This document shows, one piece after another, positions 30,215 to 61,499 of a stretch of 64,000 bases of DNA (within the stretch, counting starts at the first letter, position 1; every line of letters begins with the position of its first letter). The stretch comes from Pomacea canaliculata. Lineage: Eukaryota; Mollusca; Gastropoda; Architaenioglossa; Ampullariidae. Under the pieces are notes generated by a model, which made no database searches, was not told where the DNA came from, and worked only from the letters and a program-made list of their open reading frames with translations. The position numbers and the translations under genes are program-made. Where the stretch lies: contig NC_037590.1 in assembly GCF_003073045.1 (NCBI RefSeq), forward strand, positions 27,740,449 through 27,804,448. Reading direction: 5' to 3'.

Positions 30215-30326
<112 letters not shown>

Positions 30327-38336: not shown

Positions 38337-38386
38337 TTTGTGTCAAAGGTTATTTTCTGCTTTTGTGTCAAAGGTTATTTTCTGCC
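38337..38386. repeat. 24-bp direct duplication
   Basis: Two adjacent copies of TTTGTGTCAAAGGTTATTTT plus CTGC. Confidence 0.8.
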
Positions 38387-38924: not shown

Positions 38925-40673
38925 AGATTAAAGCCATGGCTCACTGGTCACAATGGTTCAATTTAGACGACCCAGGCAATGGTGATGGCGACTTTGAAAC
39001 CTTGGAACGAATTCAGGTAGACAAGACATTATATGAACGCTCTCTTTATCATCTGTACTCAGTCCACTGCTTTGGTGTCCACAAACAAATAACATTCTAA
39101 ACTCCTGTAGAGAAAGAGTTGAGAGGAAACTATGCAGCGCTAGTCTTATACTAGACCCACATAAGTACACACATATAGGCTTACATACATATACATAATA
39201 CATACATGCACACATTTCTTCTTTAACCTTCCTTATCCTTTTTCTACTTCTTTTTGTCTGCCACTTTCCCCTAATAAAGGATAAGTTGCACGCTGGTTGC
39301 AGGAATATCAGAACGTGTGTCCCGTTAGCTATCACGTGACGGGGGCACAGTGCCAGTTCGTTGGTTCCAACACCACCTTCGACTCCAGTTCGGCGGCGCA
39401 GTCCGCGGTGGACGTGCTGATCCAGCCATGCACCGTGTACGGTCTCATCTGCTTGAACAGCATGCAGCCATCCAACATGTGCCACGACTACAGAGTGCGC
39501 TTCATGTGTCAGGGTCAGCAACAGACACCAGTTGATGTTACTGAGTAGCCCACGTGATGGTCACGTAGACAATTGATAGCCATTAACCATTCTTGTCAGA
39601 TCATTGTGTCTTTTTTGTGATTATGGGCTGATCGCAGCTTTGAAGTGAATACATTCGAAGTATTATTTATGTTCAAAGAATGCTCAGAGATAAGAAGGTT
39701 CTTGCTAGCGATTCAGTAAATTATCTGAATCGTAAATGACTGAACAAAAATGATCGTTTCTTCCGTTACAGAAAATGACGTTCCGGGAAACAGCGGGCGA
39801 AGAGGCCCTCAACTCCTAGTCGATTCCAGAATCTACCTGACGTTCCTGGCGGTGCCTCTCATCATCTGCTTCATTCGCATCTTCTGGGTCTTTGTGTACA
39901 AAAAATACTGCAAGCAGCCGCAGCGGCGAAACATCAATCGTCGAAGTGTCAGCACCAACAGCGATGCCAGCGAGTCTTCTGAGGCGAGTGACGATGATTC
40001 CATGACATCATCGCTGGCCCACCCGCCGCCCTCATACTCAGACCTGTTCGGAACCACCCACCCAGCCAGGGTGTTCGCAATCTCTCGCGGCAGTCTGGTC
40101 CGGCAGTGCAGCAAGTGTCAGCACTACACTGACTTCGGCGCCAGCAGCGCCATCTTCAGCACCGGTCCCAGTCCAGCCGATGAACTCGCGATGACCTCTG
40201 GGAATGATGGCTCAGGCGCTGCTGGGACCAGGGTGCCGGCAAGTGATATCACCAGTGGAGAGACGATCGTCTACTCTGGCGACCCTTCCGAACATTTTGA
40301 CCAAGGTGGCATCAGCGGTTTCAATCCGCAGCTGGCCGTTCGCGCTGACCAGGAACACCCGGGGTGGGTGCATACTGCCGCACAGTCTGGGGCTTCTGTA
40401 GCACCTCCCCCGCTCCCTCAGCTTGTAGCGACAGACACGTGTCCGTGTGCGTGTCACACCGGTGGCCACGACAACCTGGCCTTCGTCTGCAGCTCACCTG
40501 CAGATGGCGCTGGCGGGGTCCCACATCCTGGGATGCATATGCCACTGTTCTCGAGGGTCGACTCGGACACGTCCTTCAGGTCGGTGACAGACAGCCTCCC
40601 AGACTACGACCAGGCTCTGGAGATTCTAAAGAAAAGCCACGATGTCGGCCGCAGTGAAGACAGTTGTGTGTGA
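38925..40673 (+). CDS. Type I membrane protein with mucin WxxW ectodomain and PPxY tail (5' partial)
   Basis: Three exons with matching phases. Exon a, 38925-39016, follows a TTATTTATTTCAG acceptor. Exon b is 39303-39513. Exon c is 39772-40673, with TGA at the end. Exons a and b together form a Mucin2_WxxW-type module: HWSQWFNLDDPGNGDGDFE, then six cysteines ending in CTVYGLICLN and HDYRVRFMCQ. Exon c opens with a short linker, a membrane helix of about 23 residues (IYLTFLAVPLIICFIRIFWV, with one Arg inside) and a basic stop-transfer stretch. About 250 Ser/Pro/Gly-rich cytoplasmic residues follow. The tail holds PPPSYSDLF (PPxY, a WW-domain ligand as in Nedd4-family substrates) and LPDYDQALEIL near the C-terminus. 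WxxW modules are known in gel-forming mucins and many molluscan secreted proteins. The signal-peptide exon is upstream and not found. Exon b read through its donor meets TAG at 39548. Ligand and function are unknown. Confidence 0.8.
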
Positions 40674-42898
40674 TCGACACTGATATAGTCTGGAAACATG
40701 CTCGGACCACCAATGTCCCTCAGTGGATGATCATCCAGTTGCGGTATATTTTACTAGCATGGCTCTCATTCCATGAGATTACATGCCTTTGGTGCCTCAT
40801 AAACAGAAAACGCTTTTCATGTCCCACGATGGAACATGTCTTTTATGTACTAGAGAGAGAGAGAAAGTATGTGTGCGGCCATCTTGTTAGACAGACGTAG
40901 AATTTCCTTCAGTACAATCCTGTGGATTGACAGATGACTGGTTGTGACATCCCAGCTATGTTTATTAAGAAATAAGCCTAAACATCTTGCTGCAGTTTTT
41001 AAACGGTGTGACTGAACGATATCTTCAGTAGACTCTTAACAGAAATGAACTAACGTGAGGTACCTCATACTCTCATCACTGGCTGAGAAGACGGGAGGAT
41101 GAGTTAAACGTATCAAATCAAGCTTTAAACTGCGGGAGAAAACAATCCTCCAGGTCAAAGAGTGAACTGGTTGAAAGAAAGGCGTGCGATGTTTTCATGA
41201 ACATGTAACGGTTGTGGTCATCGTCCGTATCGGTCAACGCATGTCACGTGATGTTTGTCCTAATTGACCGAGTATGGCATGGTTCCCCACACTGACAAGT
41301 TGGTCACCACACTTGCAGCTGTAACAGTCTGTTTTGAAGATAATATTATCCTGTACAGGACTGAGCCTAGTAAAAATAACCGGAATGTCGTAACTGTCAT
41401 ACTACTCATCTGACCTCTGACGTCAGAGCCATTTGCCCTCTCCCCCTTTCCCTCTTCTCAATAGTCCTTTTAAATGGATGCCTTAACCTCGGAGCAGCTA
41501 ATGTTTCTGGTTGCACACATGTTATTTTCATTTTTAATGAAACTTCAAGGTCCTGTCCTGTAAGCTATAATTTATTTTTCAATTATACAGTGGTGCGAAA
41601 CCCGAGCGTTTGTGGCGCGTTGACGGCGAAGCTCCGCTGATGTTGTTGCGCGAAGTAAAGTCCCTCCACCACACCCTCGACAATAAAATCTCGCCGTCAA
41701 CACTAGGTCTGACGCAAGGTCGCAGTCTGATTGCTCTCGTCAGCCACTCGAGCAACTTTACAGCCTGTCAGCTTTTGCCAAAACGAGTTAGAGACAGCCT
41801 CGATGAAGGTGGTCACAACGAGACAACAACATTTAAGAAGGACGCGTTGTAGTCAATGAAGACGAAGAATTACCTTTGGAGATATTTTATGTATGTCTTT
41901 AAAAGATTTCATCCCTTTCACTATCTTACGGAACATTTAAAGCAAACCAAGAAAGTCATGTTCTGTTGTCCTGAAAGTGGTTATACGGTCTTGATTTGAT
42001 AGCAGCCCTTTACTAGAGTTCATCACGTTCGCAGCCTTATCATGCCGAGTTCCGACTGCAAGATGCTGAAACCTAGCCATGTGCATGGAAATGAACTTGA
42101 GGGTGAACTTTACTACAATTTGCTTTTATCTGTTATACGTTTTATCTATTGTATGGACATTCAAAACTTCCACAAGCAGAGCTGTGAGTTAAAAGAGTGA
42201 TGTGTGTGCGTGCGCGTGTGTAGTTGTGGTTAACTTCTTGAACCTTTTGAATTACATTACATACATGGATTAAAGCGCCGGTGTTTCCTGTAAACAAATC
42301 TCTTTTAAAAAGGTCCCAAAGATAAAATATATCTTCTGTAAAATCATCATAAATCAAAAGACTGTACTAAACAATGTGGATGCGCTGTGATCTGCAAGAT
42401 TGCACTATTCGGTGCTAGCATGGTTGTATTTTCAATTCTGTGTTAGTATGGTTGTATTTCCCATCCTGTGCTAACATGACTTTACTTTCCATATCGCCCC
42501 AACACACACAACGACAGACTTGTTTCCAGCAAGATGTTTCTTTCTCTTGATATGCCTCACAGAAATTCCTTGAAATGAAAAAAATGCTGCTGAGTCGAAA
42601 TGATCATAATGGCGATGACAATAGTGTTGGTTCGTGATGCTGATGAATGTAATAGCGATGCTCGTTATGGTGGAAGTGACTAATCTCTGTGTGTCTATGG
42701 ACTATGCTCGTATTGAGGGACGTGTAGGGCTCGTCTGTGGGAATGTGAGAAGGTGGGAGAGAGAAGAGAAGGAGAGAGAAGCAATTCGAATTGTTAACGG
42801 GCTATTATGTAATGCCCATATACACTATTTTGCTGCATAATTCGGTTTACTCCTATTAAAAGTACTCGCTGCAACTGATATCTGTTTTCAAACAGTAA

Positions 42899-43073
42899 CA
42901 GGGCTTCTGCTAAGGCTAAATTCTTTGGGGTCCCAGGGACCCCTTCTTCAGATTTTTAAGGGGTCCCTGTTCTTCGCCCAAATTTGAAGGGGACCCCATT
43001 GACGAAAATTGAAGGGGTCCTCCGAACTTTTAATGCGTACTGTACGCAATTTTTTGCGTAAGCAGAAGCCCTG
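42899..43073. mobile_element. 175-bp MITE with 13-bp terminal inverted repeats
   Basis: The ends read CAGGGCTTCTGCTAAGGC and, from the other side inward, CAGGGCTTCTGCTTACGC (13 perfect bases, then partial match). A 5-bp direct repeat AGTAA flanks it at 42894-42898 and 43074-43078. The interior repeats GGGGTCCC/GGGACCCC blocks several times in both orientations, so the element can fold extensively. CAG ends fit hAT; a 5-bp duplication fits the hAT5-type branch. No coding capacity. Confidence 0.72.
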
Positions 43074-44405
43074 AGTAACAAGCTTTTCAAACATTCATTG
43101 TATTCATTTATATCAGGTGAGGAAAATAGTAAACTATATTTAAAGGAACACGACAAGATGGCTTTGATGTGATATACAGCAATAAACAACTGACGTCACA
43201 GCAGCAAGTATGTAAGTGAGTGAGTTTGTGGTGTGTAGCTAGACTTTTATTGCATATATATCTTTAGGCTGAGACTGTGAATGACAACGTGCATGTATTC
43301 AGTAAGCATATGCATCTTTAAAACCAAACTGAAAAACTTAAGAACGAGTTCTTACCTGAGTGCGTGCGTGCACCTGTGTGTGTGTGTGTGCGCACGTGCA
43401 GTTTTCGTGAGTACATGAGATTAATGCGCGCTTGAACGAGCAACGACCAGACAAGGAGTATTATTATCGTTTTTCTTCATCCTGCTTCTACTTTCCTGAT
43501 TAGTCTTCGTTTTCATTGCCGTTATCACTGACATTACCATGCACTTAAAAAAGTCAAAATATGATTGTTTGCCTCAAAACGAGTAAAATAACAGAATACA
43601 TTAACAGTTTAAAAATGGTTTTAGAGTAAAATAGTGATTGGAAAAAGTCCCCACCATATATTTGGAGGTGTTCGTGAAAGTATTCGCGTTATCCATGCAA
43701 CTAACCTTTGACTTTTGGCATCTAACCCCATGATCATATTTTTTCACATCACCGCACTACCTGCCTGTCGGCCGCTGTAATGGTAGCGAGGTTAGTGCAC
43801 ACACGAATGATATTAAATCTACTGAACCATTCTAACATTTGAGTTTTCTTGTCTTTCTGATTTCCACATTTTCGAGATATTTTTGTGGTCTGACAGGATC
43901 ATGTAATAAAGGGGAGACTATGCACGACACACAGTCGTGGACTGACAGAGACACCAATGGTAGGACGGGTGAATAAATACATTGAAAGCTTGCGACAACT
44001 TAGAGACCTCATGAAATATGTCAAACAGTAAGAAAATTGAACATTTTAATTCATTAATTTCAGTATCACCATGTAATGAGGCCCTCTACTATAAAATTAA
44101 ACTACAGCTATGACAGGAAAAAAGACTAAATTAGTAGTGAATTGTGGGTAACTCTTTCTTTCTCTCTCTCCGTGGAAACGCGGCAGCCATGTTGGGCGGT
44201 TGTCAGATGTGTGTGTCAGTGATAAAGCGGAAGGAGGAAGGTGGAAGTAGAGCATCTCTAGTATAACAGCCTGACATCTGTTTACGGACATCCTACAGAT
44301 AATATGCAGTCATCCCCGCAGTTTGCCATCTGTGGGAGAGCACGTGAAGGAAGTGGTGCGAACAGATAAGAAGCACAGAGAGTGTATGAAGTGTTCATTG
44401 TTTGG

Positions 44406-44441
44406 ACAACAACAACAACAACAACAGCAGCAACAACAACA
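44406..44441. repeat. (CAA)n with CAG interruptions
   Basis: Trinucleotide repeat of about 12 units. Confidence 0.9.
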
Positions 44442-46087
44442 TTGTTCTTGGGAGCTGCCAGGATGTAGCTATACAGTAATCTCACCTGTCGTGGGGGTTA
44501 AGCAGCATTATTGTTGTTTTATTATTATATGTGTTTTAAGGCTTTATCAACACTTCCCACTCTCCTATAAACCTGTTCACGTGTACAATCTCATGTTGGC
44601 AAACTTTCGCAAGTATCGGCGTACAGTACTGCGTTTACTTTGTGCACAGTATTCATCCGATTTGAATTCACAGCTTTATATATTTTTATATTGTTTTAAT
44701 TTTTTAGACAAAAATAATTATGATGATAAATATTATATAAATACCTGCATACCGCGATAAAACTCCTCGGTAGAGAATTATATATATATAAAATCATGCG
44801 ATACAGTGATGGCGCAATATAGCGAGGGACTACTGTAAACAGATTATGAAGAGGCTTGAGGTTTCCGTGTCTCTGTAAACTGTTTTCCCTCTTTCTCTCT
44901 TTCAGTATCTCACAGTCTCTATCAATCTTCTCTAGAAAGAAAGCATGTGCACAGTCTCCACTGTAGTTGCTTTTCCGCTTTTAGACAGTAAACATTATCT
45001 ACTGCAGTTGGTGATTTCGCCATTACTATTTATTTCTCCTCCTCACTTACCGTTTTTTTAATGATTTGCTATTACAAGCAGCATCTGATGTTGTATATTT
45101 TGCATATCACAGTTTGGAACATGTTAGTCTGGAGCGCAAGACAAACAACTTTGATAGTAGAGACTGAGGTGTGGAGAGTAAGAATAACTCTGTTAATACA
45201 TAAAACACCCTGAGGCACACAATCAACAACAGCCACATTAATAGTTTTTGTAACGACCAGAACCTCCTATTTCACTGTTTGTTTGTGCCTAACTGTACTA
45301 ATACTTCCTAGATTTTCATTGTGCTTCCTGTATGTCGATGATAAGTTGGACGTTTCCTTCTTAAAACACAATTTTTGAATTCTGTCTAAACAGTCACGTG
45401 GGTATGTTGTGTCAGAGACACTGTAAGCCCCACGCACACCACTCACACTGTCCGAGTGTCCGGTTCAGAGCCTGTTTCTAGTTTTACAGCTTCTCTCTTT
45501 TTTTCTTGGATGCACTTTGGGATATGCCCATGCTTGTGATCAGCAGTGTCAAAGTTCAAACTGTATGTTTGGAAACGGTAGTAAACACAAACTGTGTTTT
45601 AAAAAGTGTCAACAAGTGTCATTGGACGTGGTTTAGACTTTGTGCAATGGCTTTGAGTTCTCACCACAAACACACTAGTCAACAACAGACGTTAGGATTG
45701 TTTGTTGTTATTTACACATTGTAGAAGCCAGAGTATAAGCCAGTAGGAAATCTGGGACCATCTGTTTATACAGTAAGTGGTCTGTTTGTTTTTTTTTTTA
45801 CGAAGGTGACACCTTAAATTTGACCTCTGTCTGGTCGTGTAGGCTCATCCCTACAATTTCCAAATTATATTGTCAGGAAGTATTTTGTATAATCGTCATA
45901 ATCATAAAAATAATATTTCTTCGCCAATTCTTTTTGTTTCTCTTGATTCCCATAGCATCTCCTTCCTACATGCATGTCTTTCTTTGTCACACTTTGTTGT
46001 TGTACGGTTGATTGTCGGTTCGGTCTGGTCGTTCATTTGCAGCGCATTGAACTCTTGTCTACATGTGAAAATGCACCTTACAAATCC

Positions 46088-46113
46088 CACAATCATCATC
46101 ATCATCATCATCA
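46088..46113. repeat. (ATC)n
   Basis: Trinucleotide repeat of about 8 units on the 3' side of unit A, not seen in B or C. Confidence 0.85.
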
Positions 46114-46320
46114 GAACGAAAATAGAGTAGAGGTGATCATTAATGATTATTAGAAATATGTTTTTTAATCTCACTAATCCCTTAGATTATTATTTGGCGA
46201 ATATTTTAAGTTTACTAACATTTCTGAAAAGCATTATTTTACTAACGTGGTAAACGTACACCAAACATACATACATCAATTTTACTCTTTTTTGTTGTTT
46301 TTAAATCATTTTGATAAGTC

Positions 46321-46326
46321 TTTATT
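46321..46326 (-). terminator. Poly(A) signal, copy A
   Basis: AATAAA on the minus strand, overlapping the TAA stop of the extended frame and aligned with the signals of copies B and C. Confidence 0.65.
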
Positions 46327-46880
46327 TATGACCAAAGAATATTCGTCGCTCTAAAGAGTGAATTTCCGTTACTACAAGTTGTGGAATCCACTAAGCCGCA
46401 GCCTTTATAGGTCAAAACAAGATCAGACGCGTGTGATGACAACACCAGTAATGCATTCAAGAGAACGGAACAGATATTCATGTCCCAGCAGAGTGTCCCT
46501 TCATCTCCCAAGGTTGATGGGTTTGTAGACTGGCAAAAGTTCGGCCAAGATGGCAAGCAACACATGTGCGCGATTAAACAGATGTTAATTCCTGTATAGC
46601 CGCCCATCATCTTCTTGTGCGCATCTGGAGAACATAGCAAGGGACACGTGCATAGGATAACAAATATCAACATAAGCAAGGTTATGACACCAACAGATTA
46701 CTGGAAAATATGTAAGTGATAAAAATACATAAAAATAAGTAGTTAAATACCCAAGATTCGGTAGAGTTCATAGTCACGAGGACCATAAAGTTGTCTCCTC
46801 CCAACCGTCATCGCTCGGGTGTCCTGGCGGGTGGCCAGCGTGAAGACCAACAACAGGGCAAGAACAGTCTTCACTTGCAT
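46326..46880 (-). CDS. Secreted Cys-rich peptide precursor, copy A
   Basis: Exon 1, 46880-46751 (130 nt, phase 1), encodes signal peptide MQVKTVLALLLVFTLATR and a pro-region with GRRQLYGPRDYELYRIL. Intron 126 bp. Exon 2, 46624-46326, follows a TGTTCTCCAG acceptor and starts DAHKK. Cleavage after the Lys-Lys would release a peptide with the framework C-x5-CC-x7-C-x14-C-x5-C. The predicted precursor is 142 residues. It is longer than B and C because the codon aligned with their stop is a sense codon here, so the frame runs about 38 residues through sequence matching their 3' UTR and stops inside the AATAAA signal. TATA box 88 bp upstream of the ATG. The product would be secreted and probably convertase-processed; its role (signalling, defence or other) is unknown. 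I do not recognise the family. Confidence 0.72.
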
Positions 46881-46967
46881 CGTGACCTTTAAACTGTCAA
46901 CCTTTCGTCAAGCAGCTGTCAGCAAGAAGTGACAATGAGTGATAAGATGTGTGGCAGACAATGGCCG

Positions 46968-46974
46968 TTTTATA
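46968..46974 (-). promoter_or_regulatory. TATA box, copy A
   Basis: TATAAAA on the minus strand, its downstream end 88 bp from the ATG, with the same spacing in copies B and C. Confidence 0.75.
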
Positions 46975-48630
46975 GTCTTCTTTTCTTTTCAGCTCAAGGT
47001 AGTGACGAGCATTTCACAACCGCGTTGTTGTGTAGTTGCACACTGCGTGCGTGCGTGTACTTATGTGTGTGTGTCTGTGTGAATATATCTGTAAGTCTGC
47101 TATAGTGCGTGTGTGCGTGAGAGCTCGACTTCACGGATCTTAGTTCAGGATTGAAGCCAAACAAGTAAATGTGTGTCTGTGAGATAGAAACGAAAAAAAT
47201 GTATCTAGGAAGACGGTACAAGCGATCAGGAAAATACCGATGTAGCATCTCAACAATCTGCTGAACCCAAACCATCCCGACACTTAATTCTTTTACGAGT
47301 TGTCAGCATTACTGAAGAGAGATCGAAACCAGCATCTCGATCAGGACACTAGTCTTACTAATGAAAGGAACAGGGACTAATTGATGTTGTGTCCTCATCG
47401 CAACATCACCAGGCTGTGAACATGAGCACTGAACACGTGTCACTCTGCAGCCTCAGCCTCAGCATCTTCTTGAACCAACAGGGACGATGTCTCTTCCTCC
47501 AAGGCCTTGCTGTCGTGAACCACAGGTTTCTAGCTGACACTAGGTCTTTCATCATAAGCATCAATTTGGCTTTGTTTTAAATCTTGTTTCGGAGCTTGGT
47601 GGTATAATAAATAGCAAGCAAGATTTTTAGACACTTTATTTAATTTAGAGATGCAGAAAAAGACTGAAAACGTGTAAGTAAACTCGCAAACTTCACTCTT
47701 ACAGCACAGACACATACATACATAAGGCCAAATACACATATTTAGTTTACACTCAGACAAATGCACACGCAGCTCTAGCACACAGACAAACAACCGTGTG
47801 TATTCATCTCTGTGCATCCATGAGTGAAGATGACAATTGTTTTTAACCGGAAAACCGCCAGAAGTGTGTCTATGAGATAAAAGTATTGCACACAGTTGTA
47901 CAGGTTCTCTTTTTTTTTTCTTGGGATATGCCCGTGAGTGTGACCAGCAGTCTCAAAGTTCAAACTGTATGTTTGGAAACTGTAGTAAACACAAACTGTA
48001 TTTTACAAAGTGTCAGAAAGTGTCATTGGACACGGTTTTGACTTCGTGCAATGGCTTTGAGTTCTCATCACAAACACACACCAGTCAACAACAGACGTTA
48101 GGATTGTTTGTTGTTATTTACACATTGTATAAGCCAGAGTATAAGCCAGTAGGAAATCTGGGACCGTCTGTTTATACAGTAAGTGTTGTTGTTGTTTTTT
48201 TGACATCACAAATTTGACCTGTGTGCTCGTGTTGATGTTTGTAGGCTCATCCTACAATTCTGGACTCAAGACTAATTTTTTTTTGTATAATCGTCATAAT
48301 CATACAATTAATATTTCTTTACCCTTTCTTTTTTGTTTCTCTTGATTCCCATAGCATCTACTTCCTATATGCAACTTTTTCTTCGTCAACTTTGTTGTTG
48401 TACGGTTGATTGTCGGTTCTTTCTAGTCGTTCATTTGCAGCGAAAATCATGGAATATTAGAAACATGTTTTTTTAATCTCTCTAGTAGCTTACATTACTA
48501 GTGTGCGAATATTTTCAGTTTTACTAATATTTCTGAGAAGCATTATTTTGCTGTGGTAAACGTACACCAACCATACATACATACATCAATTTTACTGTCT
48601 TTTATATCTTTAATATCGTTTTTATAAGTC

Positions 48631-48636
48631 TTTATT
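48631..48636 (-). terminator. Poly(A) signal, copy B
   Basis: AATAAA on the minus strand about 125 nt past the stop codon, conserved in copy C. Confidence 0.6.
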
Positions 48637-48759
48637 TATGACCCAAAAATATTCGTCACTCTAAACAGTGAATATCCGTTACTACAAGTTGTGGAGTCCA
48701 TCAAGCAGCAACATTTAAAGGTCAAAGCAAGATGAGATGTCGTGTGATGACAACACCAG

Positions 48760-49678
48760 TCATCCGTGCGAGAGAATGGCACACATCCAGCCGCCCAAGC
48801 AGTCTATATATATATCTATATAGCTCACGTTTATAGACTGGCAAGATTTCTCCCAATATTCAGGGCAACATTGGTGCGCGATCACACATTTGATTTTTGC
48901 TATTTCGTCGGGCATCATCTTCTTGTGCGCATCTGGAGAACATAACAAGGGACACGTGCATAGAATATAAAATAATCAACATAAGCAAGGTTATGACACC
49001 CACAGATAAATACTGATGGCTTTATACAAATAGTGTTACAGCAAAACTGTGTTTATAGCCTTTAACCATTATGTTCCCCAAAATTCTCTACTGTACGCAT
49101 GCAGCAAGTTCAAATCCCAGCTGGTTAACCCATTGTCTGAGTAACCCGGAATGTTTCATGTGTTATAGACAGAGTATTGTCATGAAAAGTTGAGTTTTAA
49201 CACCTTACACAGCCTTCAAAAATTTTCAAATATTTCACTGTGAACACGACTTCATTCTGTTATAAACATGACTCAGACATCTTATTGATAATGAGGCTGC
49301 TGATGATGATGATAATGAAGAAGAAGAAGAAGCAAGGGGTGGGGCAGGAGGAGACTATATTATTGCTGTACTTGCTAACTTCCAAAAAGTTGCAAACTGG
49401 GTTTGTTGTATATATTATGCAGTTTAAAATTATTTTCCGAAATAGGAAACTTGAAAATTAGTTCAGCTACATATGTTTTCTTTAACATTTTACTATTAAG
49501 AAAAATATGTAAGTGATAAAAAATACATAAAAATAAATAGTTAAATACCCATGATTTGGTAGAGTTCATAGTCACGAGGGCCATAAAGTTGTCTCCTCCC
49601 AACCGTCATCGCTCGGGTGTCCTGGCGGGTGGCCAGCGTGAAGACCAACAGCAGGGCAAGAACAGTCTTCAGTTGCAT
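48760..49678 (-). CDS. Secreted Cys-rich peptide precursor, copy B
   Basis: Exon 1, 49678-49549 (130 nt, phase 1), gives signal MQLKTVLALLLVFTLATR and the same pro-region as copy A with minor changes (YELYQI). Intron 616 bp. Exon 2, 48932-48760, starts DAHKKMM after the conserved TCTCCAG acceptor. The mature part after Lys-Lys has six cysteines, C-x5-CC-x7-C-x13-C-x5-C, and ends ILSHG before TGA. Precursor 100 residues. The TATA box (49766-49772) and AATAAA (48631-48636) are conserved with copies A and C. No frame break: this looks like a functional gene. Its upstream region is interrupted by a solo LTR about 0.8 kb away. Confidence 0.78.
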
Positions 49679-49765
49679 CGTGACCTTTAAACTGTCAACC
49701 TTTCGTCAAGCAGCTGTCACCAAGAAGTGACAATGAGTGATAAGATGTGTGCCAGACAACAGCGG

Positions 49766-49772
49766 TTTTATA
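49766..49772 (-). promoter_or_regulatory. TATA box, copy B
   Basis: TATAAAA, its downstream end 88 bp upstream of the ATG, as in copies A and C. Confidence 0.75.
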
Positions 49773-50473
49773 GTTTTCTTTTCAGCTCAAGGTAGTGACG
49801 AGCATTTCACAACCGCGTTGTGTGTAGCTGAACACGTGGTATGTGCGTGCGTGCGTGTACTTACTTGTGTACGTCTGTGTGAATATATCTGTATGTCTGC
49901 TACAGTGCGTGTATTTATGTATGTGTGTCTGTGTGAATATATCTGTATGTCTGCTACAGTGCGTGTGTGCGTGAGAGCTAGACTTCCCAGATCTTAGTTC
50001 AGGATTGAAGCCCAGCAAGTAAATGTGTGTCTGTGAGATAGAAATGAAAAAAAGTATCTAGGAAGACGATACAAGCGATCAGGAAAATACCGATGTAGCA
50101 GCTCAACAATCTGCTGAACCCAAACCATCCTGGCACTTTATTTTTTTAGAGTTGTCAGCATTAGTGAAGAGAGATCGAATCCAGCATCTCGGTCAAGACA
50201 TACTAGTCTTACTAATGACAGGAACAGGCACTAATTGATGTTGTGTCCTCATAGCAACATCACCAGGCTGTGAACATGAGCACTGAACACGTGTCACCAT
50301 GAAGCCCCAGCATCAGCCTCAGCATCTTCTCGCACACAGGAAGCAGCAGGGACGATGTTTCTTCCTCCAAGGCCTTGCTGTCGTCATCCACAGGTTTCTA
50401 GCTGACACTAGGTCTTTCATCATAAGCATCAATTTGGCTTTGTTTTAAATCTTGTTTCTGAGCTTGGTGGCAT

Positions 50474-51669
50474 TGTCGCGTAAACGCGGTCGGGCGCCGC
50501 AAGACTCGCTCTCTCACAGACGCACTCACAATCGCACAGACAAACAATCCAACGCCCGTCGCGAGCAACAAAGCCAATCACTCCTCAGTGAACATAAAAC
50601 ACGTGCACGAAGTTACACTACAAGACTAAAGTTTATTGGCGGCCGCAGAATGCAACCACCAACCCAACAAAGAAAGAAAAATACACATATATAAAACGAA
50701 AAACAACAACAAAGGAAAAGAAAAAGAGAACCCCACAGGTAGATCGCGGCGTCACGCCCTCGTCTACTGTCAAGCACACAGTCCTCGCGGCTTGAATCTC
50801 TGGGTTTCACCAACAGTCCGCTGACACCTCGGCGCAGGTCTGTTCGCACGCAGGTACACGTAGTTGGCTGGCCGACGGCAGTCCGTTAGTCCTCCGTCTG
50901 TCTGTTTGCTGCTTCATCCCACTAGGTTTAGTGAGCGGGTGTTTGAGCCTGCATAAAGTGGTGTGCATGAACAAAGTACTCTACGGACATGCATATAACA
51001 TCACAAGGCTGGCCTCTCAAGCGTCCTTTGTGCCAAAACCAACAACAGCTTCGTCTGCTGTGACAGACGCAATTGCAACTTTACCTACACAAAGAGAATG
51101 CCCTGATAAAGACTACCCAAATAAAGATCCCACAAAAATATAGATACACCACATAAGTCTATACAACAATCTCTCAGCCTCAGTCGCTCACGCACTTCTC
51201 ACACTTGCGCACCGGCCGGCCAGCCATTAGCCTGAAACACCCAATCGGCTCGTGACGCGTTGATTCTGCCGCACGCAGAAAACGCAGGAGAGAACGAAAC
51301 TTCTGCCCAGACCCGTACCACACACCACTCCGGCGAAATGCATCAACAGCAGAGCCCCGAGCACACTCGTGTCTTCCGGCACCGAATTCTTCCTCGTTCT
51401 GCCCACCCGACCCTGGGCTTTCCAAAACCAGAGTTCAGGTCTAACCAGGGGGAGAGGAAAACAATCACCATTCCCCCGCTAATAGGGTCTCCGCCCCCTG
51501 TCCCGTCAGGACCCGCAAAGAAAAAACCCCACCAGGTATCATCCTGAGTTCTGGTGTACCCCAATGCGGACCCATTACCTCCTGACCCGATCAAGTGACC
51601 AGCCACACCGACCCCCTCCTCCCCGGGCACACACCTCTCAAACAACGCTGCGGCAGGCAACACGCGACA
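50474..51669 (+). mobile_element. Solo LTR of a retrotransposon
   Basis: A 1,196-bp block present in unit B but absent from the aligned site in unit A (GCTTGGTGGTATAATAAATA). It begins TG and ends CA as part of inverted termini TGTCGCGT and ACGCGACA. It is flanked by a perfect 5-bp duplication GGCAT (50469-50473, 51670-51674). TG...CA ends plus a 5-bp duplication are diagnostic of LTR-element insertion. A TATA-like TATATAAAA (50688-50696) and AATAAA (51120-51125) in the same direction suggest plus orientation. No internal region or second LTR is present, so it is a solo LTR, a fossil of Gypsy-like or related type. Perfect duplications suggest a fairly young insertion, after the unit duplication. 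Confidence 0.8.
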
Positions 51670-52706
51670 GGCATAATGAATAGCAAGCAAGACTTTTAGA
51701 CATTTTAGCGAATTTAGAGATGCAGAAAAAAGGGTGTTTGAAAGGTGTAAGTTCGCAAACTTCACTTATACACAGACACATACACATACTCACATACATA
51801 AGGCCAAATACACATATTTAGTTTACACTCAGACAAATGCACACGCAGCTCTAGCACACAGACAAACAACCGTGTGTATTCATCTCTGTGCATCCATGAG
51901 TGAAGATGACAGCAATTGATTTTAACCGGAAAACCGCCAGAAGTGTGTCTATGAGATAAAAGTATTGCACACAGTTGTACAGGTTCTTTTTTTTTTCTTG
52001 GGATATGTCCGTGCGTGTGATCAGCAGTGTCAAAGTTCAAACTGTATGTTTGGAAAAGATAGTAAACACAAACTGTATTTTACAAAGTGTCAGAAAGTGT
52101 CATTGGACGCGGTTTAGACTTTTATGCAATGGCTTTGAGTTCTCCTCACAAACACACACAGGTCAACAACAGACGTTAGGATTGTTTGTTGTTATTTACA
52201 CGTTGTATAAGCCAGAGTATAAGCCAGTAGGAAATCTGGGACCGTCTGTTTATACAGTAAGTGTTGTTGTTGTTTTTTGACACCACAAATTTGACCTGTC
52301 TGATCGTTGATATTTGTAGGCTCATCCCTACAATTTGGACTCAAGACTTATATTTTTTGGTATAATCGTCATAATCATAAAATTAATATTTCTTCACCCT
52401 TTCTTTCTGTTTCCCTTGATTCCCATAGCATCTCCTTCCTATATGCAACTTTTTCTTCGTCAACTTTGTTGTTGTACGGTTGATTGTCGGTTCTTTCTAG
52501 TCGTTCACTTGCAGCAAAAATCATGGAATATTAGAAACATGTTTTTTAATCTCTCTAGTACCTTACATTATTAGTGTGCTAATATTTTCAGTTTTACTAA
52601 TATTTCTGAGAAGCATTATTTTGCTAATGTGGTAAACGTACACCAACCATACATACATACATCAATTTTACTGTCTTTTATATCTTTAATATCGTTTTTA
52701 TAAGTC

Positions 52707-52712
52707 TTTATT
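52707..52712 (-). terminator. Poly(A) signal, copy C
   Basis: AATAAA on the minus strand about 120 nt past the stop codon. Confidence 0.6.
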
Positions 52713-52832
52713 TATGACCCAAGAATATTCGTCACTATAAACAGTGAAAATCCGTTAGTACAAGTTGTGGAGTCCACCAAGCATCATTTAAAGGTCAAAG
52801 CAAGATGAGATGTCGTGTGATGACAACACCAG

Positions 52833-53740
52833 TCATTCGTGCGAGAGAAAGTCACAGATCGTGCTGCAGTCTATATCTGCAGGTATATCGCGCACGTTTG
52901 TAGACAGGCAAAATTTCTCCCGTAATTCAGGGCAACATTCGAGCACGATCTCACACAAGTATGTTGGTGTACCGACGCCCATCTTCTTCTTGTGCGCATC
53001 TGGAGAACATAACAAGGGACACGTGCATAGAATATAAAATAATCAACATAAGCAAGGTTATGACACCCACAGATAAATACTGATGGCTTTATCTACAAAT
53101 GATCCCACCCCACCCGTTTACAAATAGTGTTACAGCAAAACTGTGTTTATAGCCCTTAACCATTATGTTCCCCGAAATTCTCGGCTGAACGCATGCAGCA
53201 AGTTCAAATCCCAGCTGGTTAACCTATTAGAGTATTGTCATAAAAAGTTGAGTTTTAACACATTATAAAGCCCTCGACTGCTTAAGACAAATAGAAATCT
53301 TCAGATATTTCATTGTACACATGACTTTCTGTCCTGAACATGACTCTTATGAATAATGCTGCTGCGGCTGCTGTGCTAGTGATAATGAAGAAGCAAGGGA
53401 TGGGGGCAGGAGGAGACTATACTATTGTTATGCTTGCTAACTTCCAAGAAGTTGCAAACTGGGTTTGATGGCTTTAGTATGCAGTTTTCAATAATTTTCC
53501 GAAATAAGGCAGTTGGAAATTAGTTCAGCTACGTATGTTTTCCTTAAAAATTTTACTATTAAGAAAAATATGTAAGTGATAAAAATATATAAAAATAAAT
53601 AGTTAAATACCCAAGATTTGGTAGACTTCAAAGTCAAGAGGGGCATAAAGTTGTCTCCTCCCAACCGTCATCGCTCGGGTGTCCTGGCGGGTGGCCAGCG
53701 TGAAGACCAACAACAGGGCAAGAACAGTCTTCAGTTGCAT
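52833..53740 (-). CDS. Secreted Cys-rich peptide precursor, copy C
   Basis: Exon 1, 53740-53611 (130 nt, phase 1), has signal MQLKTVLALLLVFTLATR and a pro-region ending QLYAPLDFEVYQIL. Intron 611 bp, close in sequence to that of B. Exon 2, 52999-52833, starts DAHKKKM. Six cysteines, C-x5-CC-x7-C-x13-C-x3-C, and it ends FLSHE before the stop. Precursor 98 residues. Compared with B, the mature residues between the cysteines differ at most positions (VIAHQ/EIVLE, PEYWEKS/PELREKF), whereas the acceptor side of the intron and the 3' UTR are essentially identical. TATA box at 53828-53834; AATAAA at 52707-52712. It looks intact. Function unknown. Confidence 0.78.
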
Positions 53741-53827
53741 CGTGACCTTTAAACTCTCAACCTTTCGTCAAGCAGCTGTCAGCAAGAAGTGACAATGAGT
53801 GATAAGATGTGTGGCAGACAATGGCCG

Positions 53828-53834
53828 TTTTATA
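53828..53834 (-). promoter_or_regulatory. TATA box, copy C
   Basis: TATAAAA, its downstream end 88 bp upstream of the ATG, as in copies A and B. Confidence 0.75.
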
Positions 53835-54752
53835 GTCTTCTTTTCTTTTCAGCTCAAGGTAGTGACGAGCATTTCACAACCGCGATGTTGTGTAGTTGCA
53901 CACTTGGTATGTGCGTGCGTGTACCTATGTGTATATGTCTGTGTGAATATATCTGTATGTCTGCTACAGTGCGTGTGTGCGTGAGAGCTAGACTTCCCAG
54001 ATCTTAGTTCAGGATTGAAGCGAAGCAAGTAACTGTGTGTCTGTGAGATAGAAATGAAAAAAAGTATCTAGGAAGACGGTACAAGCGATCAGGGAAATCT
54101 GCTGAACCCAAACCATCCTGACATTTATTTTTTTACGAGTTGTCAGCATCAGTGAAGAGAGATCGAATCCTGCATCTCGGTAAGGACACGCTAGTCTTAC
54201 TAACGACAGGAACAGGCACTAACTGATGTTGTGTCCTCATAGCAACATCACCAGCCTGTGCACTTGAACACTGAACACGTGTCACCATGCAGCATCAGCC
54301 TCAGCATCTTCTCGCACACAGGAAGCAGCAAGGACGATGTCTCTTCCTCCAAGGCCTTGCTGTCGTCATCCACAGGTTTCTAGATGACTCTAGGAATCTT
54401 TGACTCCGGCTATAAGAACTTATCATAAGTATCAATTCGGCTTTTTTTAAATAATAATATCAAACAAGGTTTTTAGACACTTTATTCAATTTAGATATAC
54501 AGAAAAGAGTGTGTAAAACGTGTAAGCTCGCAAACTTCACACTTACAGCACACAGATACATATTCATACAGATACTCAAATACATATGGACACATATATA
54601 TCTGTGGTTCACACTCAGACCTGTAAATGAAAACAAATGCACACGCAGCTCTAGCAGACAAACATCCGTGTGTATTCATTTCTATGCGTTCATGAGTGAA
54701 GATGACAATTTTTTTAAACCGGAAAACCGCCAGAAGTGTGTCTATGAGATAA

Positions 54753-56295
54753 AAGTTCAAGAAACCGAACTGAAGATGGCCAAGGACAAAGGGATGGACT
54801 GTCATTGTTCACCTCCTCATCGCCCTGACATTTTTTCTGCTCTTGGTCGTCTAAACTGCACCACGGGACAGGAAATGATGTTATCTTCATATCTTCGAAG
54901 TTACAGTAACTGAATGATCTATAGTGTGCTGAATTCAAAGAGTTTTTTTTATAAAAAAAACAAGGGCAATGAATATTCTGCAAAAGTGAGATTGTAAATC
55001 TTTGTCTAAACTCCGGTAATATGTTGGATGTCCTGCATGTGGCGCCACAATGTCAATGCCAATCAGCTTGCAGCAACAGATTTATTTATCTTTGTATTCA
55101 CATGACAATAACAGGAAATGCGGCATCATTTTCTGGACACCTCCAGCATCCAACTAGTGACTTAGAAAGTAGAAACAATTGTTTCTGACTTGCTTTAATT
55201 TGTTAATTAAGGAATAAAGGAATTTCCTGCACAATCATGACATACAAGACCATTCCACTGAAGTCCAAAACTTGACTAAGTGACACAGCCATGATGTTTA
55301 TCTTTACCAGAGGAGGAGGCCAGTAGCTGGCCATATTCCACGACCAATACACGGGGCAGGTTTTCAATCAATTTTGCAGTTGTCCAGTTTCTTGGCAGAA
55401 AGGAAAAAAGGATTTTATCTGGTGGCCTATAGAAAAGGTGTCAAAGTATAGTCATGCTTGACTTTAAGTCAGGACTGACATTGTGTCAAATTATCAATGA
55501 TAGTGGAATATGGCAGATTTCAGATGTTGCAGCCATTGCTACAAAATAAAATTGGGATACATGTATCTACTTAATATTTTTAATACAAGAATTCAGCTTG
55601 GTCCTGGTCATCCTTGTCTGACTTTGGGAGCCACTGTTTCAGAAAGGATATTTGTGTTTGTTAATAGATGCCACAGATTATTACACAATGTATCGTGGCT
55701 TTAGAAAAGGCATAAACCTACCTACTGTTGGCATGGCCTTCAGAAATCTGTATTTATAAATGAAATTTTTGCTATAAGAATAAGGAAGTTCAAGGCTTTG
55801 TCAACTCTCGGTTCTACTAATAGCAAATGTAACCACTTCTTTTCACAACCTAATTTCCTGTAAATGGTTGTGGTTATTTAACACATCACATAGTTTTACC
55901 CAAAAGTTTTTACTTAATGGACAATGCCATATGTTCAAGCATTGAAATAATATTCTTGGAAATCTTGTTTCAGTACTGTGTTAAAGCACAGAAAGCACTA
56001 AGCAAAGAAATAAAAGAAATTCTATTCACTCCTCTTTTCCTCCCCCTAAACATGGACATAAACAAAATCATCAACCACATGAAACTGTGAATCGTTCCTT
56101 AACATTTATGTTGAGCCAAATGACAGACAAGTCGAAGAATAAGTTTATTTATCATTTTGGTTAGAGATGTTTGTTATTACTTTAATGGTTACTAAACCTT
56201 TGCAAGAAAAAGTTCACACAGTCAGGGAAACAAAGTCAACTGAGAACATTTCCGATTTTCTTTGATGAAGCAGCATTCATCAGCACTTCTCAGGT
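54753..56295. other. 3' side of unit D, no supported gene
   Basis: Sequence beyond the end of unit C homology. AT-rich, with no recognisable exon; short frames at 54714-54983 and 55510-55704 lack motifs. Confidence 0.45.
56144..56149 (-). terminator. Putative poly(A) signal, copy D
   Basis: AATAAA on the minus strand about 150 nt past the stop codon of copy D. Confidence 0.4.
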
Positions 56296-56884
56296 CTAGA
56301 TGTCCAGGCAAAAATCCCTGCCATCAATAACCAGTTGCCCAAACATGTCACACAAATGTTTCAGCATTCCTTGTCGCATTGTCTTTTTGGACACATCTGG
56401 AAAACAAAAAAAAATAATTAAAAAAACAACAACACTGGTATAGACAGATGGTAATGACACACGGCATACTGACAGTTCAAGCAAGGACACACTTTACTAA
56501 CTGGTGTCTATGGTTTAATTGAGTGAGTTTAGCTTAATACTAAATAAATGTCTCTTACAGAATTTAGTTGGTCTAAACGGATGTAGCATGAATACAAAAA
56601 TAATTCGAAATTCAAACTTCAGACTTTAACTATTGATTTTAATGGTGTATTGATATATTTTAAGAAGAAAGAAGATTGTATTACTCAATGGAAAATATAA
56701 ACAAATACATAATACACAAATAAAAAATAAATACAAACAAAAGTTAGAAATAAATACCCAAGAGTTGGTAGGGATCAAAGTCACGCGGAGCATAAAGCTG
56801 TCCGTCAACAGCCATCTCTCGGGTGTCCAGGCGGGTGGCCAGCGTGAAGACCAACAACAGGGCAAGAACAGTTTTCAGTTGCAT
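56296..56884 (-). CDS. Divergent member of the peptide family, copy D
   Basis: Exon 1, 56884-56758 (127 nt, phase 1, one codon shorter than the others), encodes the same signal peptide MQLKTVLALLLVFTLATR and a diverged pro-region (DGQLYAPRDFDPYQLL). Intron 361 bp. Exon 2, 56396-56296, follows a TTTTTGTTTTCCAG acceptor and starts DVSKK. The mature part is only 28 residues with two cysteines spaced C-x13-C (HLCDMFGQL to DFCLDI). Precursor 75 residues. Homology upstream of the ATG stops just short of where the other copies carry TATAAAA. A putative AATAAA lies at 56144-56149. It could be a sub-functionalised peptide gene with its own promoter, or one decaying after loss of the shared promoter. 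Confidence 0.62.
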
Positions 56885-56968
56885 CGTGACCTTTAAACTC
56901 TCAACCTCTCGTTAAGCAGCTGTCACCAAGAAGTGACAATGAGTGATAAGATGTGTGCCAGACAATAG

Positions 56969-58331: not shown

Positions 58332-60508
58332 TCAGGTTGCACATAAGGCCTCAACCAGAGTCCGCCACCGATGTCGATCGGCTGAAACACGCTCTAGGTG
58401 ACCCCATGTCCAGCCCTTTCCTTTCATCTCCCTTTCCACTGTTCTTCTCCAAGTTTCCTTTGGGCGGCCTCGTTTTCTTCGGCCGTCTGGAGTCCATCGT
58501 AGGGCGACTCTGGAAAGGTCTGCTGTCTGCTGGCGGAGCACATGTCCAATCCATCGCCAACGCCTTCGTTGAACCTGCGTGGTGATGGACTCGGTTTCAC
58601 TTCTTCGGTGGAGTTCTTCGTTGGTGATGGTGTTTGGCCAAAAGATGTTAAGTATGCGCCTGAGCATCTGTTTTGGAAGACGTCAAGCTTGTTACTGATG
58701 GTTTTGGTCATCTTCCAAGATTCTGATCCGTAAAGGAGGGTGCTGATCACATTTGACTTGAAGATTCTCAGCTTGATCTTCTGGCTGATGTTTTTTGCCT
58801 TCCATGTGCTCCTGAGTGAGGCAAAGGCCTGACTGGCTTTCGCCAGTCGGGCTCGAATCTCCACCTCCGCATCCCCAGTGTTTGACATTTTGGACCCAAG
58901 ATAGGTGAAACTGTCAACTTCCTCAATCTCTTCTCCATTTAGTTTGATGCTGTCTTGGACTCTGGCGTTCACTCTCATACTGTTAGTCTTTTTTGTGCTG
59001 ACCTTCAAGCCAAGGTTTCCAGCTGTTTCTGAGAAGGCCTTTGTTTTTTCCTGCATGTCTTGGTGGCGGTGTGACAGCAGGGCAATGTCATCAGCAAAGT
59101 CCAAGTCTTCCAGTGCTGTTGTTGCTGTCATAGTCATGGTCCATCTGAGCCCTCTCCTCTCGCTGTCGGTGGAAGTCTTCATGATCCAGTCCATGGCCAG
59201 GATGAAGAGGAACGGCGACAGAATGCAGCCCTGCTTCACCCCGGTACTGACGTTGAAGGGGTCTGTGAGCTCCGTGTCACAGACAACCTGGGATTTGAAA
59301 TCGCTGTACAGCATTGCAATGACCTGAACAAGTTTTGCAGGGACTCCGTAATGCCTCAGGATCTTCCATAAGGACTCGCGGTGGATGCTGTCAAAAGCCT
59401 TCTCCAGGTCGATGAAATTGATGTACAGCGGTGTGTTCCATTCGTTGCTCTGCTCCAGAATCTGTCGCAGAATGAAGATGTGTTCGGAGCAGGATCGCCC
59501 AGGGCGAAATCCTGCTTGCTGTGGTCGGAGGTCTTTCTCAAGAGTTGCCGTCAGTCTTGACAAAACAATCTTGCTGAAGACCTTGCTGGTGAGGGAAAGA
59601 AGTGTTATGCCCCTCCAATTATTGCAGTCTCCAAGATCTCCTTTCTTGGGTAACTTGAAGATGAGCCCTGTCTTCCACGCAACAGGGACCTGCCCTGATT
59701 CCCAAATTTGCCTGAAGATTTCAGTCAGCTTGGGAGCTGTCACATTTATATCTGCTTTCAACATCTCTGCTGTTATTCCATCTGCCCCTGGTGCTTTGCC
59801 ACTCTTCATTGTCTTGACTGCTGCTGTCACTTCTTCCAGGCTTGGTGGGTCTGTGCAGATGTCAAGGTCTATAGCTGCTGGCTGGATGTCTGCAAGCTGA
59901 GGGGGATCTGGTCTGTTCAGAACTGACTCAAAATGTTCCCTCCAGCGCTGTAGTTTTCCTGCCTCTCCCTCGACGACATTACCGTTCACGTCTTTCACTG
60001 GCACATCACTGTTCTTAAACCCGTTGTTTAGCTGTTTGTTTATCTTGTACAGTGTCTTCAGGTCATTTTTACTTGCTGCATTTTCTGCTTCATCTGCCAG
60101 TTTCTCTATGTGATATCTTTTGTCGGTTCTTGTCATCCTCTTTACCTCTTTGTTCAGTTTTGCATATCTTTGTCTGTGTTGTTCCTTCAGGCGTTCAGAT
60201 CTGGTGCTGTTGATTCTTTGTTTGGCTGACTTTCTCTCTTCTATCTTCTTCCATGTCTCTTCTCTGATCCACTGTTCTTTCTTTTTCCGTTGGAAGCCCA
60301 GTATTTTCTCTCCTGATTCCTGTAAGACTCGATTGAAGTCGTCTAAGGTCATCTCTTGTTGGTCTCCTAGTGCCTGGAACCTGTTCTTTACTTCAATAGC
60401 AAAGGCCCTTTCGGTGGCTGGATTTTTTAGTTTGCCGGAGTCCACTCTCTGCTGACGTGCCTGTTTTCCTCGTGATCGACGCAGCTTCAGAGAAACTGTG
60501 GCTATCAC
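58332..60508 (-). CDS. LINE reverse transcriptase region
   Basis: Continues the LINE protein. RT motifs in order: SGKAPGADGITAEML, a KTGLIFKLPKKGD strand, FRPGRSCSEHI, INFIDLEKAFDSIHRE (catalytic Asp), KQGCILSPFLF and FADDIALLSHR (the FADD form of the YxDD box, about 59080-59100). Then comes thumb-like sequence (FTYLGSKMSN, LLYGSESWKM). Near 58665 the frame shifts; the C-terminal part (ILNIFWPNTITNEEL, RRWRWIGHVLRQ, KRGRPKETWRRTVE) runs in the next frame to a stop at 58332. One missing C explains the shift (TGCTCAGG for TGCCTCAGG). All catalytic residues are present. Confidence 0.88.
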
Positions 60509-61230
60509 AAGAGTGTGGTCACTGGCAATGTCTGCTCCTCTGTAGGCTCTAACATCTTGAAGTGAGCTCCTCCATTTTCGGTTGATGATGACATGGTCTA
60601 TCTGGTTCTTTGTGATCCCATCTGGTGATGTCCATGTTGCCTTGTGGATGTCTTTGTGTGGAAGAGTGTGCCTCCAATCAGTAGGTTGTTTTCTTCACAA
60701 AAGTCTGCCAGTCTCTCTCCGTTGTCATTGATGGTTCCGATTCCATGTTTGCCCATGACATGCTCCCTGCAGGTGTTGTCACTTCCCACCTTGGCATTGA
60801 GATCGCCGATGATGAGCAACATGTCGTGGGCTGGAACGCTTTCTGAGGCTGCCTGGAGCTGATCGTAAAAAGCATCCTTGTCTTCTGCCTCAGAGTCATT
60901 TGTTGGTGCATAGCAGGCTAGCACTGTCAGCTTGGTGTACTTGGAATGGAATCTTGCTCTCAAAAGCCTGGGTCCATAAGGCTTCCATTCCAGCAGTGCC
61001 TTTTCCGTTTTCTTGTTGAGGAGTAGAGCTACTCCTTCAGAGTGCTGAGCGTCTGATCTTCCTGAGAACAAGATGGTATGTCCTGACGCTAGTCTCCTCT
61101 TTCCCGTGCCGGTCCATCTGACCTCACTGACTCCCAGGATGTCCAAGTTGTAGTTGTCAAACTCCTTGACTAATTGGAGCATCCTGCCAGTCTGGTACAA
61201 GGTCTGGACGTTCCAGCACCCCACCCTCAA
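60509..61230 (-). CDS. LINE APE endonuclease region
   Basis: N-terminal part of the LINE polyprotein. Visible motifs in order: VGCWNVQTLYQTGRM (the conserved Asn strand), SEVRWTGTG (catalytic Glu), CYAPTNDSEAED, IIGDLNAKVGSD (the GDxN motif) and, past a single-base frame break near 60645, ADIASDHTLV (the SDH motif at about 60520-60540). It nicks target DNA to prime reverse transcription. The break looks like loss of one C (CTCTTCC where CTCTTCCC is expected). The true start codon is not certain; a 5' leader is open in another frame. Confidence 0.82.
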
Positions 61231-61499
61231 CTTCTGCCTCGGCCTTCAGTAAATCCGCTGTCGGGGCGCCAGCTCCCTTTCGGGTTTGGCTGTCGTCCGT
61301 CATTAGTCCAGTCTCCTGGTGTGCTTCATTACCTTCGCCATCTGTGACGAGTTCTCTGGTTTTAGTTTCTGTAACAGGATTTTTTTTACATGGTGGGGTT
61401 GTTAGCCCTACCACAACCTATTTTACCTCTAGGTGAGGTGTCCACCTTAGTCGCCTCTTACGACATGCCTGGCTGGATGGCAGGGACCCTATTCTTGCA

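What the first reader, a model, noticed from the sequence alone, without database searches (positions are those of the whole stretch)
45480..56968. Unrecognised tandem family of secreted Cys-rich peptide precursors
Four head-to-tail genes share a two-exon structure, an almost invariant signal/pro exon, a Lys-Lys site at the start of exon 2 and, in three of them, the framework C-x5-CC-x7-C-x13/14-C-x3/5-C. This precursor layout is that of processed peptides, yet I can name no family. It is the best candidate here for an undescribed system (pheromone, hormone, defence or other secreted peptide).
Basis: partly seen in the sequence, partly recalled or inferred. Interest (0 to 1): 0.88.

Follow-up and report, generated by a model that had tools for sequence, protein, structure and literature searches.

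The report
Fast-evolving secreted snail peptide genes
Four neighbouring apple-snail genes appear to make small secreted peptides, and in three of them the peptide itself changes far faster than the DNA around it, a pattern best known from cone-snail venom genes although this snail is not known as venomous.

Summary
[quoted passage not shown] Four minus-strand genes share two exons, a phase-1 intron, a signal/pro exon and a KK site; g1-g3 have exactly C-x5-CC-x7-C-x13/14-C-x3/5-C with identical Cys codons. Exon 2 identity is 63-77%, against 83-99% for exon 1, UTRs, intron and flanks; in g2-g3 the fast segment starts at the second base after the KK codons. dN exceeds dS (g2-g3 0.40 vs 0.04; three-gene omega 5.5, p=7e-4), which points to a translated, KK-released peptide under diversifying selection. 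Exon 1 is not visibly constrained in g1-g3. g4 shares only 5'UTR, exon 1 and the intron start; g1 has lost its stop codon. No other exon 1 copy was found in the assembly, and no Pfam, PDB or literature match. Best reading: an undescribed family of exocrine, target-binding disulfide peptides, built like conotoxins but not shown to be conotoxins. Tissue and target are unknown; defence/offence is preferred over reproduction, and hormone is disfavoured.

The parts
56758..56884 (-). g4 exon 1 coding part (signal + pro)
   Evidence: tblastn; splice junction; 5'UTR + exon 1 + 35-38 nt of intron are 87-88% identical to g3 and g2 (247 and 252 columns); beyond that only short weak matches
56296..56396 (-). 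g4 exon 2 (D-V-S-K-K then 28 aa with C-x13-C; stop TAG)
   Evidence: no significant similarity of the mature part to g1-g3 (413 of 5000 shuffles reach the g3 score)
53828..53834 (-). g3 TATA box (TATAAAA), 94 nt upstream of ATG; same in g1 (46968-46974) and g2 (49766-49772); absent at that place in g4
   Evidence: read from the upstream sequence
53611..53740 (-). g3 exon 1 coding part (signal + pro, ends in the phase-1 G)
52833..52999 (-). g3 exon 2; predicted mature peptide 52985-52836 (50 aa, 6 Cys), stop TGA 52835-52833
   Evidence: best hypervariable segment against g2 is 52984-52850; AATAAA begins at 52712
49549..49678 (-). g2 exon 1 coding part
48760..48932 (-). g2 exon 2; predicted mature peptide 48918-48763 (52 aa, 6 Cys)
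   Evidence: AATAAA begins at 48636
46751..46880 (-). g1 exon 1 coding part
46326..46624 (-). g1 exon 2; six-Cys part homologous to g2/g3, then a read-through tail where g2/g3 have TGA, ending at a TAA whose last base begins the AATAAA
   Evidence: the tail region is 88% identical to the 3'UTRs of g2 and g3

Best explanation
A small tandem family of exocrine, target-binding disulfide peptides. Each gene makes a precursor with a signal peptide and a short pro-region (exon 1). A proprotein convertase cuts after Lys-Lys at the start of exon 2 and frees an acidic peptide of about 50 residues with three disulfides (g1-g3; g1 with an added tail). Six cysteines fix the scaffold while the loops are changed by diversifying selection between duplicate copies, so that copies bind different or fast-changing targets. 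I think the likeliest use is defence or offence at an external surface or gland (mucus, saliva, egg or gut secretion), next a reproductive-tract peptide. SHOWN from sequence: gene structure, cysteine scaffold, hypervariability centred on the mature part, omega > 1, no other copy of exon 1 found in the assembly. INFERRED: transcription and splicing, secretion, cleavage at KK, three disulfides. GUESSED: tissue and target.
For: Exon 2 CDS identity is 0.653, 0.628 and 0.768 in the three pairs, against 0.828-0.991 for the other eight segments of the unit. The most divergent 140-column window in 3 of 3 pairs is the mature exon: 0.264, 0.429 and 0.393, against medians of 0.064, 0.107 and 0.079. The fast segment starts at the 2nd (g2-g3), 7th (g1-g2) and 11th (g1-g3) base after KK. 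g2-g3 mature dN 0.402, dS 0.038, one-sided Fisher p = 5e-4. Non-synonymous sites diverge more than intron sites in 3 of 3 pairs, p = 4e-8 to 2e-11. Codon model omega 5.46 (p = 7e-4), 12.25 without Cys columns (p = 5e-5); exon 1 omega 1.29, p = 0.75. All six shared Cys codons are identical in g1-g3. Exon 2 indels are 3 and 6 nt only, while outside only 4 of 29, 3 of 26 and 8 of 25 are multiples of 3. TATA and AATAAA present in g1-g3.
Against: No RNA or peptide evidence was available. Only three sequences carry the selection test; Fisher alone is not significant for g1-g2 and g1-g3 (p = 0.09 each). In g1 comparisons dS of exon 2 is also high (0.32-0.37 against 0.03-0.06 in exon 1), so part of that divergence may be an older exon 2 beside gene-converted flanks. 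One intron segment of g2-g3 reaches 0.21 divergence, and windows outside the exon reach 0.18 and 0.24 in the other pairs. For g1-g2 the best segment runs on far downstream (48912-48186). Exon 1 shows little purifying selection (g4 against g1-g3: dN 0.12-0.15, dS 0.15-0.22), which a working signal/pro-region would be expected to show. g1's lost stop and g4's missing TATA suggest that some copies are decaying. The peptides are acidic (net -3.4 to -5.2), which argues against cationic antimicrobial action.
Confidence: 0.55

Rival explanations
1. Reproductive-tract peptides (seminal, egg or capsule gland) whose mature part evolves under sexual conflict or gamete recognition.
For: Omega far above 1 in the mature part is also typical of reproductive proteins (established knowledge). 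A 2026 apple-snail paper reports positive selection in one Pomacea clade of the egg protein PV1 (passages of PMC13336756; the same paper reports a lack of it at the PV2 locus of P. diffusa).
Against: Diversification here is between tandem paralogues on one scaffold, which suits a repertoire against several targets better than one mating partner. No tissue data.
Confidence: 0.25
2. Signalling peptides: water-borne pheromones or hormones/neuropeptides. The stretch between the RR and KK sites (Q-L-Y-...-D-A-H) could be an additional product with a cyclised N-terminal Gln.
For: Dibasic sites flank a similar stretch of 17 residues in g1-g3; peptides are acidic, like some protein pheromones (recalled).
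Against: Hormones are normally under purifying selection; omega of the mature part is 5-12. The RR site is lost in g4 and exon 1 omega is about 1.3 in g1-g3.
Confidence: 0.12
3. Decaying duplicates: a repeated block with chance ORFs or pseudogenes.
For: g1 stop loss; g4 without TATA and with another second exon; exon 1 omega not below 1 in g1-g3.
Against: Pseudogenes would diverge in exon 2 as in introns. Instead non-synonymous divergence is several times higher, indels keep the frame and 6 of 6 Cys stay with the same codons.
Confidence: 0.07
4. Older exon 2 lineages (balanced or exon-shuffled) kept apart while the flanks are homogenised by gene conversion; exon 2 itself need not evolve fast. 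This concerns the process and does not exclude the functions above.
For: g1 exon 2 dS 0.32-0.37 against 0.03-0.06 in exon 1; the closest pair changes along the unit (upstream g1-g2 0.939, 5'UTR g1-g3 0.991, downstream g2-g3 0.945); g4 shares only an exon 1 cassette.
Against: g2-g3 exon 2 dS is as low as the flanks (0.038) while dN is 0.402. Precise escape of the mature part from conversion would itself need selection.
Confidence: 0.2

Closest known systems
Conotoxin gene superfamilies (A superfamily for gene structure)
   Same: A-superfamily genes have two exons with one intron in the pro-region; across the superfamilies studied the mature exon is far more variable than the other exons (PMC3862624, abstract and passages) and about three times more diverged than flanking non-coding DNA (PMC10561478, passage).
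   Different: Different organism; introns of 126-616 nt against about 1 kb for A and over 3 kb for the three-exon superfamilies of that paper; signal sequence and scaffold could not be compared with a conotoxin database.
Framework XXXII conotoxins (C-CC-C-C-C; Lv32.1, Mo3964)
   Same: Same order of cysteines (table in PMC11677113); a 7-residue loop after CC, and a last loop of 5 as in g1 and g2 (three rows of the members table seen in PMC9741281).
   Different: First loop 5 instead of 6, third loop 13-14 instead of 5; mature peptides of 50-53 residues (g1 without tail) against 32; the M superfamily, which lists framework XXXII, has three exons.
Endogenous P. canaliculata protein related to two-finger conotoxins (PMC12236594, passages seen)
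   Same: A secreted Cys-rich apple-snail protein related to cone-snail toxins: a precedent for such links.
   Different: Related conotoxin superfamilies have 12 Cys (about 124 residues in Tx33.1) and three or four coding exons; a different scaffold from the six-Cys peptides here. Its sequence was not compared.
Attractin-type water-borne pheromones of Aplysia (recalled)
   Same: Small acidic secreted six-Cys peptide of a gastropod.
   Different: No adjacent Cys pair in attractin (recalled); no comparison was made here.

Membership tests
Conotoxins, framework XXXII | Cysteine order C-CC-C-C-C | tested here: met
   g1, g2, g3 (3 of 4 genes; g1 has two more Cys in its tail); framework table
Conotoxins, framework XXXII | Loop lengths like printed members (6, 0, 7, 5, 5) | tested here: not met
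   5, 0, 7, 13/14, 3/5 here; three member rows seen, of ten members the paper mentions
Conotoxins, framework XXXII | M-superfamily gene structure (three exons, two introns) | tested here: not met
   Two coding exons, one phase-1 intron; paper
Conotoxins, any superfamily | Signal sequence of a named superfamily | not tested
   No conotoxin database here; signal and pro strings gave 0 papers
Conotoxins, any superfamily | Mature exon evolving much faster than flanks and introns | tested here: met
   g1-g3
Conotoxins, any superfamily | Expression in a venom gland of Conoidea | not testable with these tools
   Organism is an apple snail by assembly size; no RNA data
Any Pfam peptide family (insulin, ShK, defensins, Kunitz, Kazal and so on) | Profile match | tested here: not met
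   0 families for 4 of 4 precursors at E <= 10 (HMMER's filters drop most matches above about 0.1)
Families with a solved structure | Sequence or profile match in PDB | tested here: not met
   Best E 0.54 (g3 precursor), 0.81 (g1 mature), none for g2 mature or the g1-g3 profile; g4 not searched; fold comparison not possible

The most novel reading that the evidence does not exclude
A non-venomous apple snail carries its own conotoxin-style diversification locus: a signal/pro cassette, which in g4 stands before another second exon, feeding a six-Cys mature exon whose loops change several times faster than neighbouring non-coding DNA. The gene design that cone snails use for venom would then exist, or have arisen separately, in a lineage without a venom apparatus.
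Probability: 0.3. Interest if true: 0.8.

Novelty: new member of a known kind. Interest (0 to 1): 0.6.

Why it matters
If the peptides are made, this is a compact four-gene system for asking what drives venom-like gene evolution without venom: where the peptides are expressed, what they bind and whether the pattern exists in other Pomacea, Pila and Marisa. It would also give an undescribed secreted peptide family in a major invasive pest snail, open to direct tests by RNA-seq, mass spectrometry and RNAi.

Tried and rejected
Known family by profile: Pfam on 4 precursors, nothing at E <= 10; PDB by sequence, best E 0.54 to an epsin-type domain, chance; g1-g3 profile, none; g2 mature, none; g1 mature, best E 0.81 to a chemokine, chance. 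Literature: signal string, 0 papers; six further precursor strings, 0 papers; topic searches showed no paper describing these genes, going by the rows listed (12 of 186, 8 of 115, 15 of 27, 30 of 47) and the passages opened. The library is open-access PMC only, so absence there is weak.

g4 as a relative of the mature family: not supported at this sensitivity (413 of 5000 shuffles reach the g3 score, 724 of 5000 the summed score). An insulin-like reading of g4 was considered and dropped by eye: the C-x13-C spacing does not fit and the rest of the pattern lies in other frames.

A second, plus-strand Cys-rich ORF in the repeated flank (45480-45640 and copies near 47921 and 51998): cysteines and stop are not kept between the three copies, so it is probably chance. 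Its genome search did not complete.

More members in the window: a g1-g3 profile over six-frame pieces finds only g1-g3 well (next best E 0.024, chance; g4's frame E 3.4). Pfam for neighbouring genes covered one plus-strand frame of 1-29994, six frames of 30001-44999 and four ORFs, not the whole window.
Full report
Where it is. The window lies at C1:27740449-27804448 of a genome of 440,159,624 bases in 24 contigs; C1 is 45,418,568 long. [quoted passage not shown] The species name is therefore an inference from size.

Gene anatomy. Four genes lie on the minus strand. tblastn of exon 1 finds four places, 46880-46749, 49678-49547, 53740-53609 and 56884-56756, plus three chance-level hits. In 4 of 4 the exon ends ...G|GTATTT and the next begins ...CCAG|AT, giving a phase-1 split GAT codon, followed by two codons and then Lys-Lys. 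Predicted introns are 126 (g1), 616 (g2), 611 (g3) and 361 (g4) bases (from these coordinates). Precursors have 142, 100, 98 and 75 residues. Residues 5-16 are strongly hydrophobic (GRAVY 2.7), as in a signal peptide; no signal-peptide program was run. g1-g3 have a TATAAAA 94 nt before the ATG and an AATAAA after exon 2; g4 has no TATA box at that place.

The cysteine pattern. Spacings are 5-0-7-14-5, 5-0-7-13-5 and 5-0-7-13-3 in g1-g3, and a single pair 13 apart in g4. The codons of the six shared cysteines are the same in all three genes (TGT TGT TGC TGC TGC TGT). Of 50 aligned mature columns 11 are invariant, and these include all six Cys (P = 2.9e-5).

The main finding: hypervariability centred on the mature part. 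In the MAFFT alignment of the g1-g3 units (g4 not included), exon 2 coding identity is 0.653 (g1-g2), 0.628 (g1-g3) and 0.768 (g2-g3). The other eight segments, from the upstream flank to the downstream flank, lie between 0.828 and 0.991. A two-rate likelihood scan puts the fast segment at 52984-52850 for g2-g3 (37 of 135 differ inside, 164 of 2266 outside; g3 coordinates). That starts at the second base after the KK codons and stops 14 bases before the end of the last sense codon. For g1-g3 it is 52975-52834 (61 of 142 against 185 of 1812), starting at the 11th base after KK. For g1-g2 the best segment starts at the 7th base after KK (48912, g2 coordinates) but runs on to 48186, because the downstream flank of g1 is also more diverged (148 of 709 against 79 of 1274). 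In 3 of 3 pairs the most divergent 140-column window is the mature exon; the best windows wholly outside reach 0.207, 0.179 and 0.243.

Selection. Nei-Gojobori on the mature part gives dN/dS 0.634/0.348 (g1-g2), 0.663/0.367 (g1-g3) and 0.402/0.038 (g2-g3); one-sided Fisher p = 0.095, 0.092 and 5e-4. Non-synonymous sites against intron sites give p = 1.6e-11, 3.6e-11 and 3.5e-8. A one-ratio codon model on three sequences (own script) gives omega 5.46, 2dlnL 11.4, p = 7e-4; without the Cys columns 12.25, p = 5e-5; exon 1 gives 1.29, p = 0.75. So exon 1 of g1-g3 is alike because the duplication (or conversion) is recent, not because it is visibly constrained; against g4 its dN is 0.12-0.15 and dS 0.15-0.22. 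The high dS of g1's exon 2 suggests that its flanks were homogenised with those of g2 and g3; the closest pair also changes along the unit.

Copies in trouble. g1 has TTA where g2 and g3 have TGA and reads on through DNA homologous to their 3'UTR to a TAA that touches the AATAAA. g4 shares 56966-56723 with g3 (87.9% over 247 columns; 5'UTR 78 of 82 bases), ending about 35 bases into the intron, and has only a short weak match at the start of exon 2. Its mature part is not detectably related. g4 may be an exon 1 cassette before another second exon, or an old copy with a converted exon 1.

Family size. The 242-base exon 1 region finds four places in the assembly, all in this window. The g3 precursor finds 7 exon matches and the g4 precursor 5, all in the window. 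The tool calls its counts lower bounds for repeats and large families. A search with g2's exon 2 did not complete, so distant relatives of the mature exon elsewhere in the genome are not excluded.

What it works like and what it is. No Pfam, PDB or literature string match. The design, one exon for signal and pro-region and a hypervariable mature exon with kept cysteines, is that of conotoxin genes (PMC3862624 abstract and passages; PMC10561478 passages). The order C-CC-C-C-C is conotoxin framework XXXII (table in PMC11677113), but loops, length and gene structure differ from the members seen. I do not file it as a conotoxin. A preprint reports another, larger apple-snail protein related to conotoxins with a two-finger fold (PMC12236594, passages); its sequence was not compared. 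The mature peptides of g1-g3 are acidic (net -3.4 to -5.2), unlike typical cationic antimicrobial peptides.

Confidence. High that g2 and g3, and probably g1, encode or until recently encoded translated peptides under diversifying selection, released at or near KK. Moderate that they are exocrine and bind non-self or fast-changing targets. Low on tissue and target. All selection results rest on three sequences of about 50 codons.

Noticed in passing
38945-39016 and 39303-39509 (+), followed by ORF 39744-40673 (+): Two pieces match Pfam Mucin2_WxxW (E 0.021, below cut-off, and 2.3e-6) just before an open frame with one likely membrane span and a PPPSY motif (by eye); perhaps one multi-exon membrane gene beside the array. 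The Vpu match of that frame (E 0.00037) is below its cut-off and looks like chance.
   Followed up: partly
58424-61245 (-): Non-LTR retrotransposon: endonuclease (PF03372, E 1.3e-9) and reverse transcriptase (PF00078, E 1.6e-35) in two overlapping frames.
   Followed up: partly
45480-45640 (+), copies near 47921 and 51998: Plus-strand open frame in the repeated flank with a hydrophobic start and C-x3-C...C-x3-C in the first copy; cysteines and stop are not kept in the other two.
   Followed up: partly
50473-51670: About 1.2 kb between two repeat pieces (D9 and D18) that are contiguous in the g1 unit; looks like an insertion upstream of g2, G+C-richer by eye.
   Followed up: no
27224-27297 (+): tRNA-Glu (CTC) gene.
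   Followed up: no
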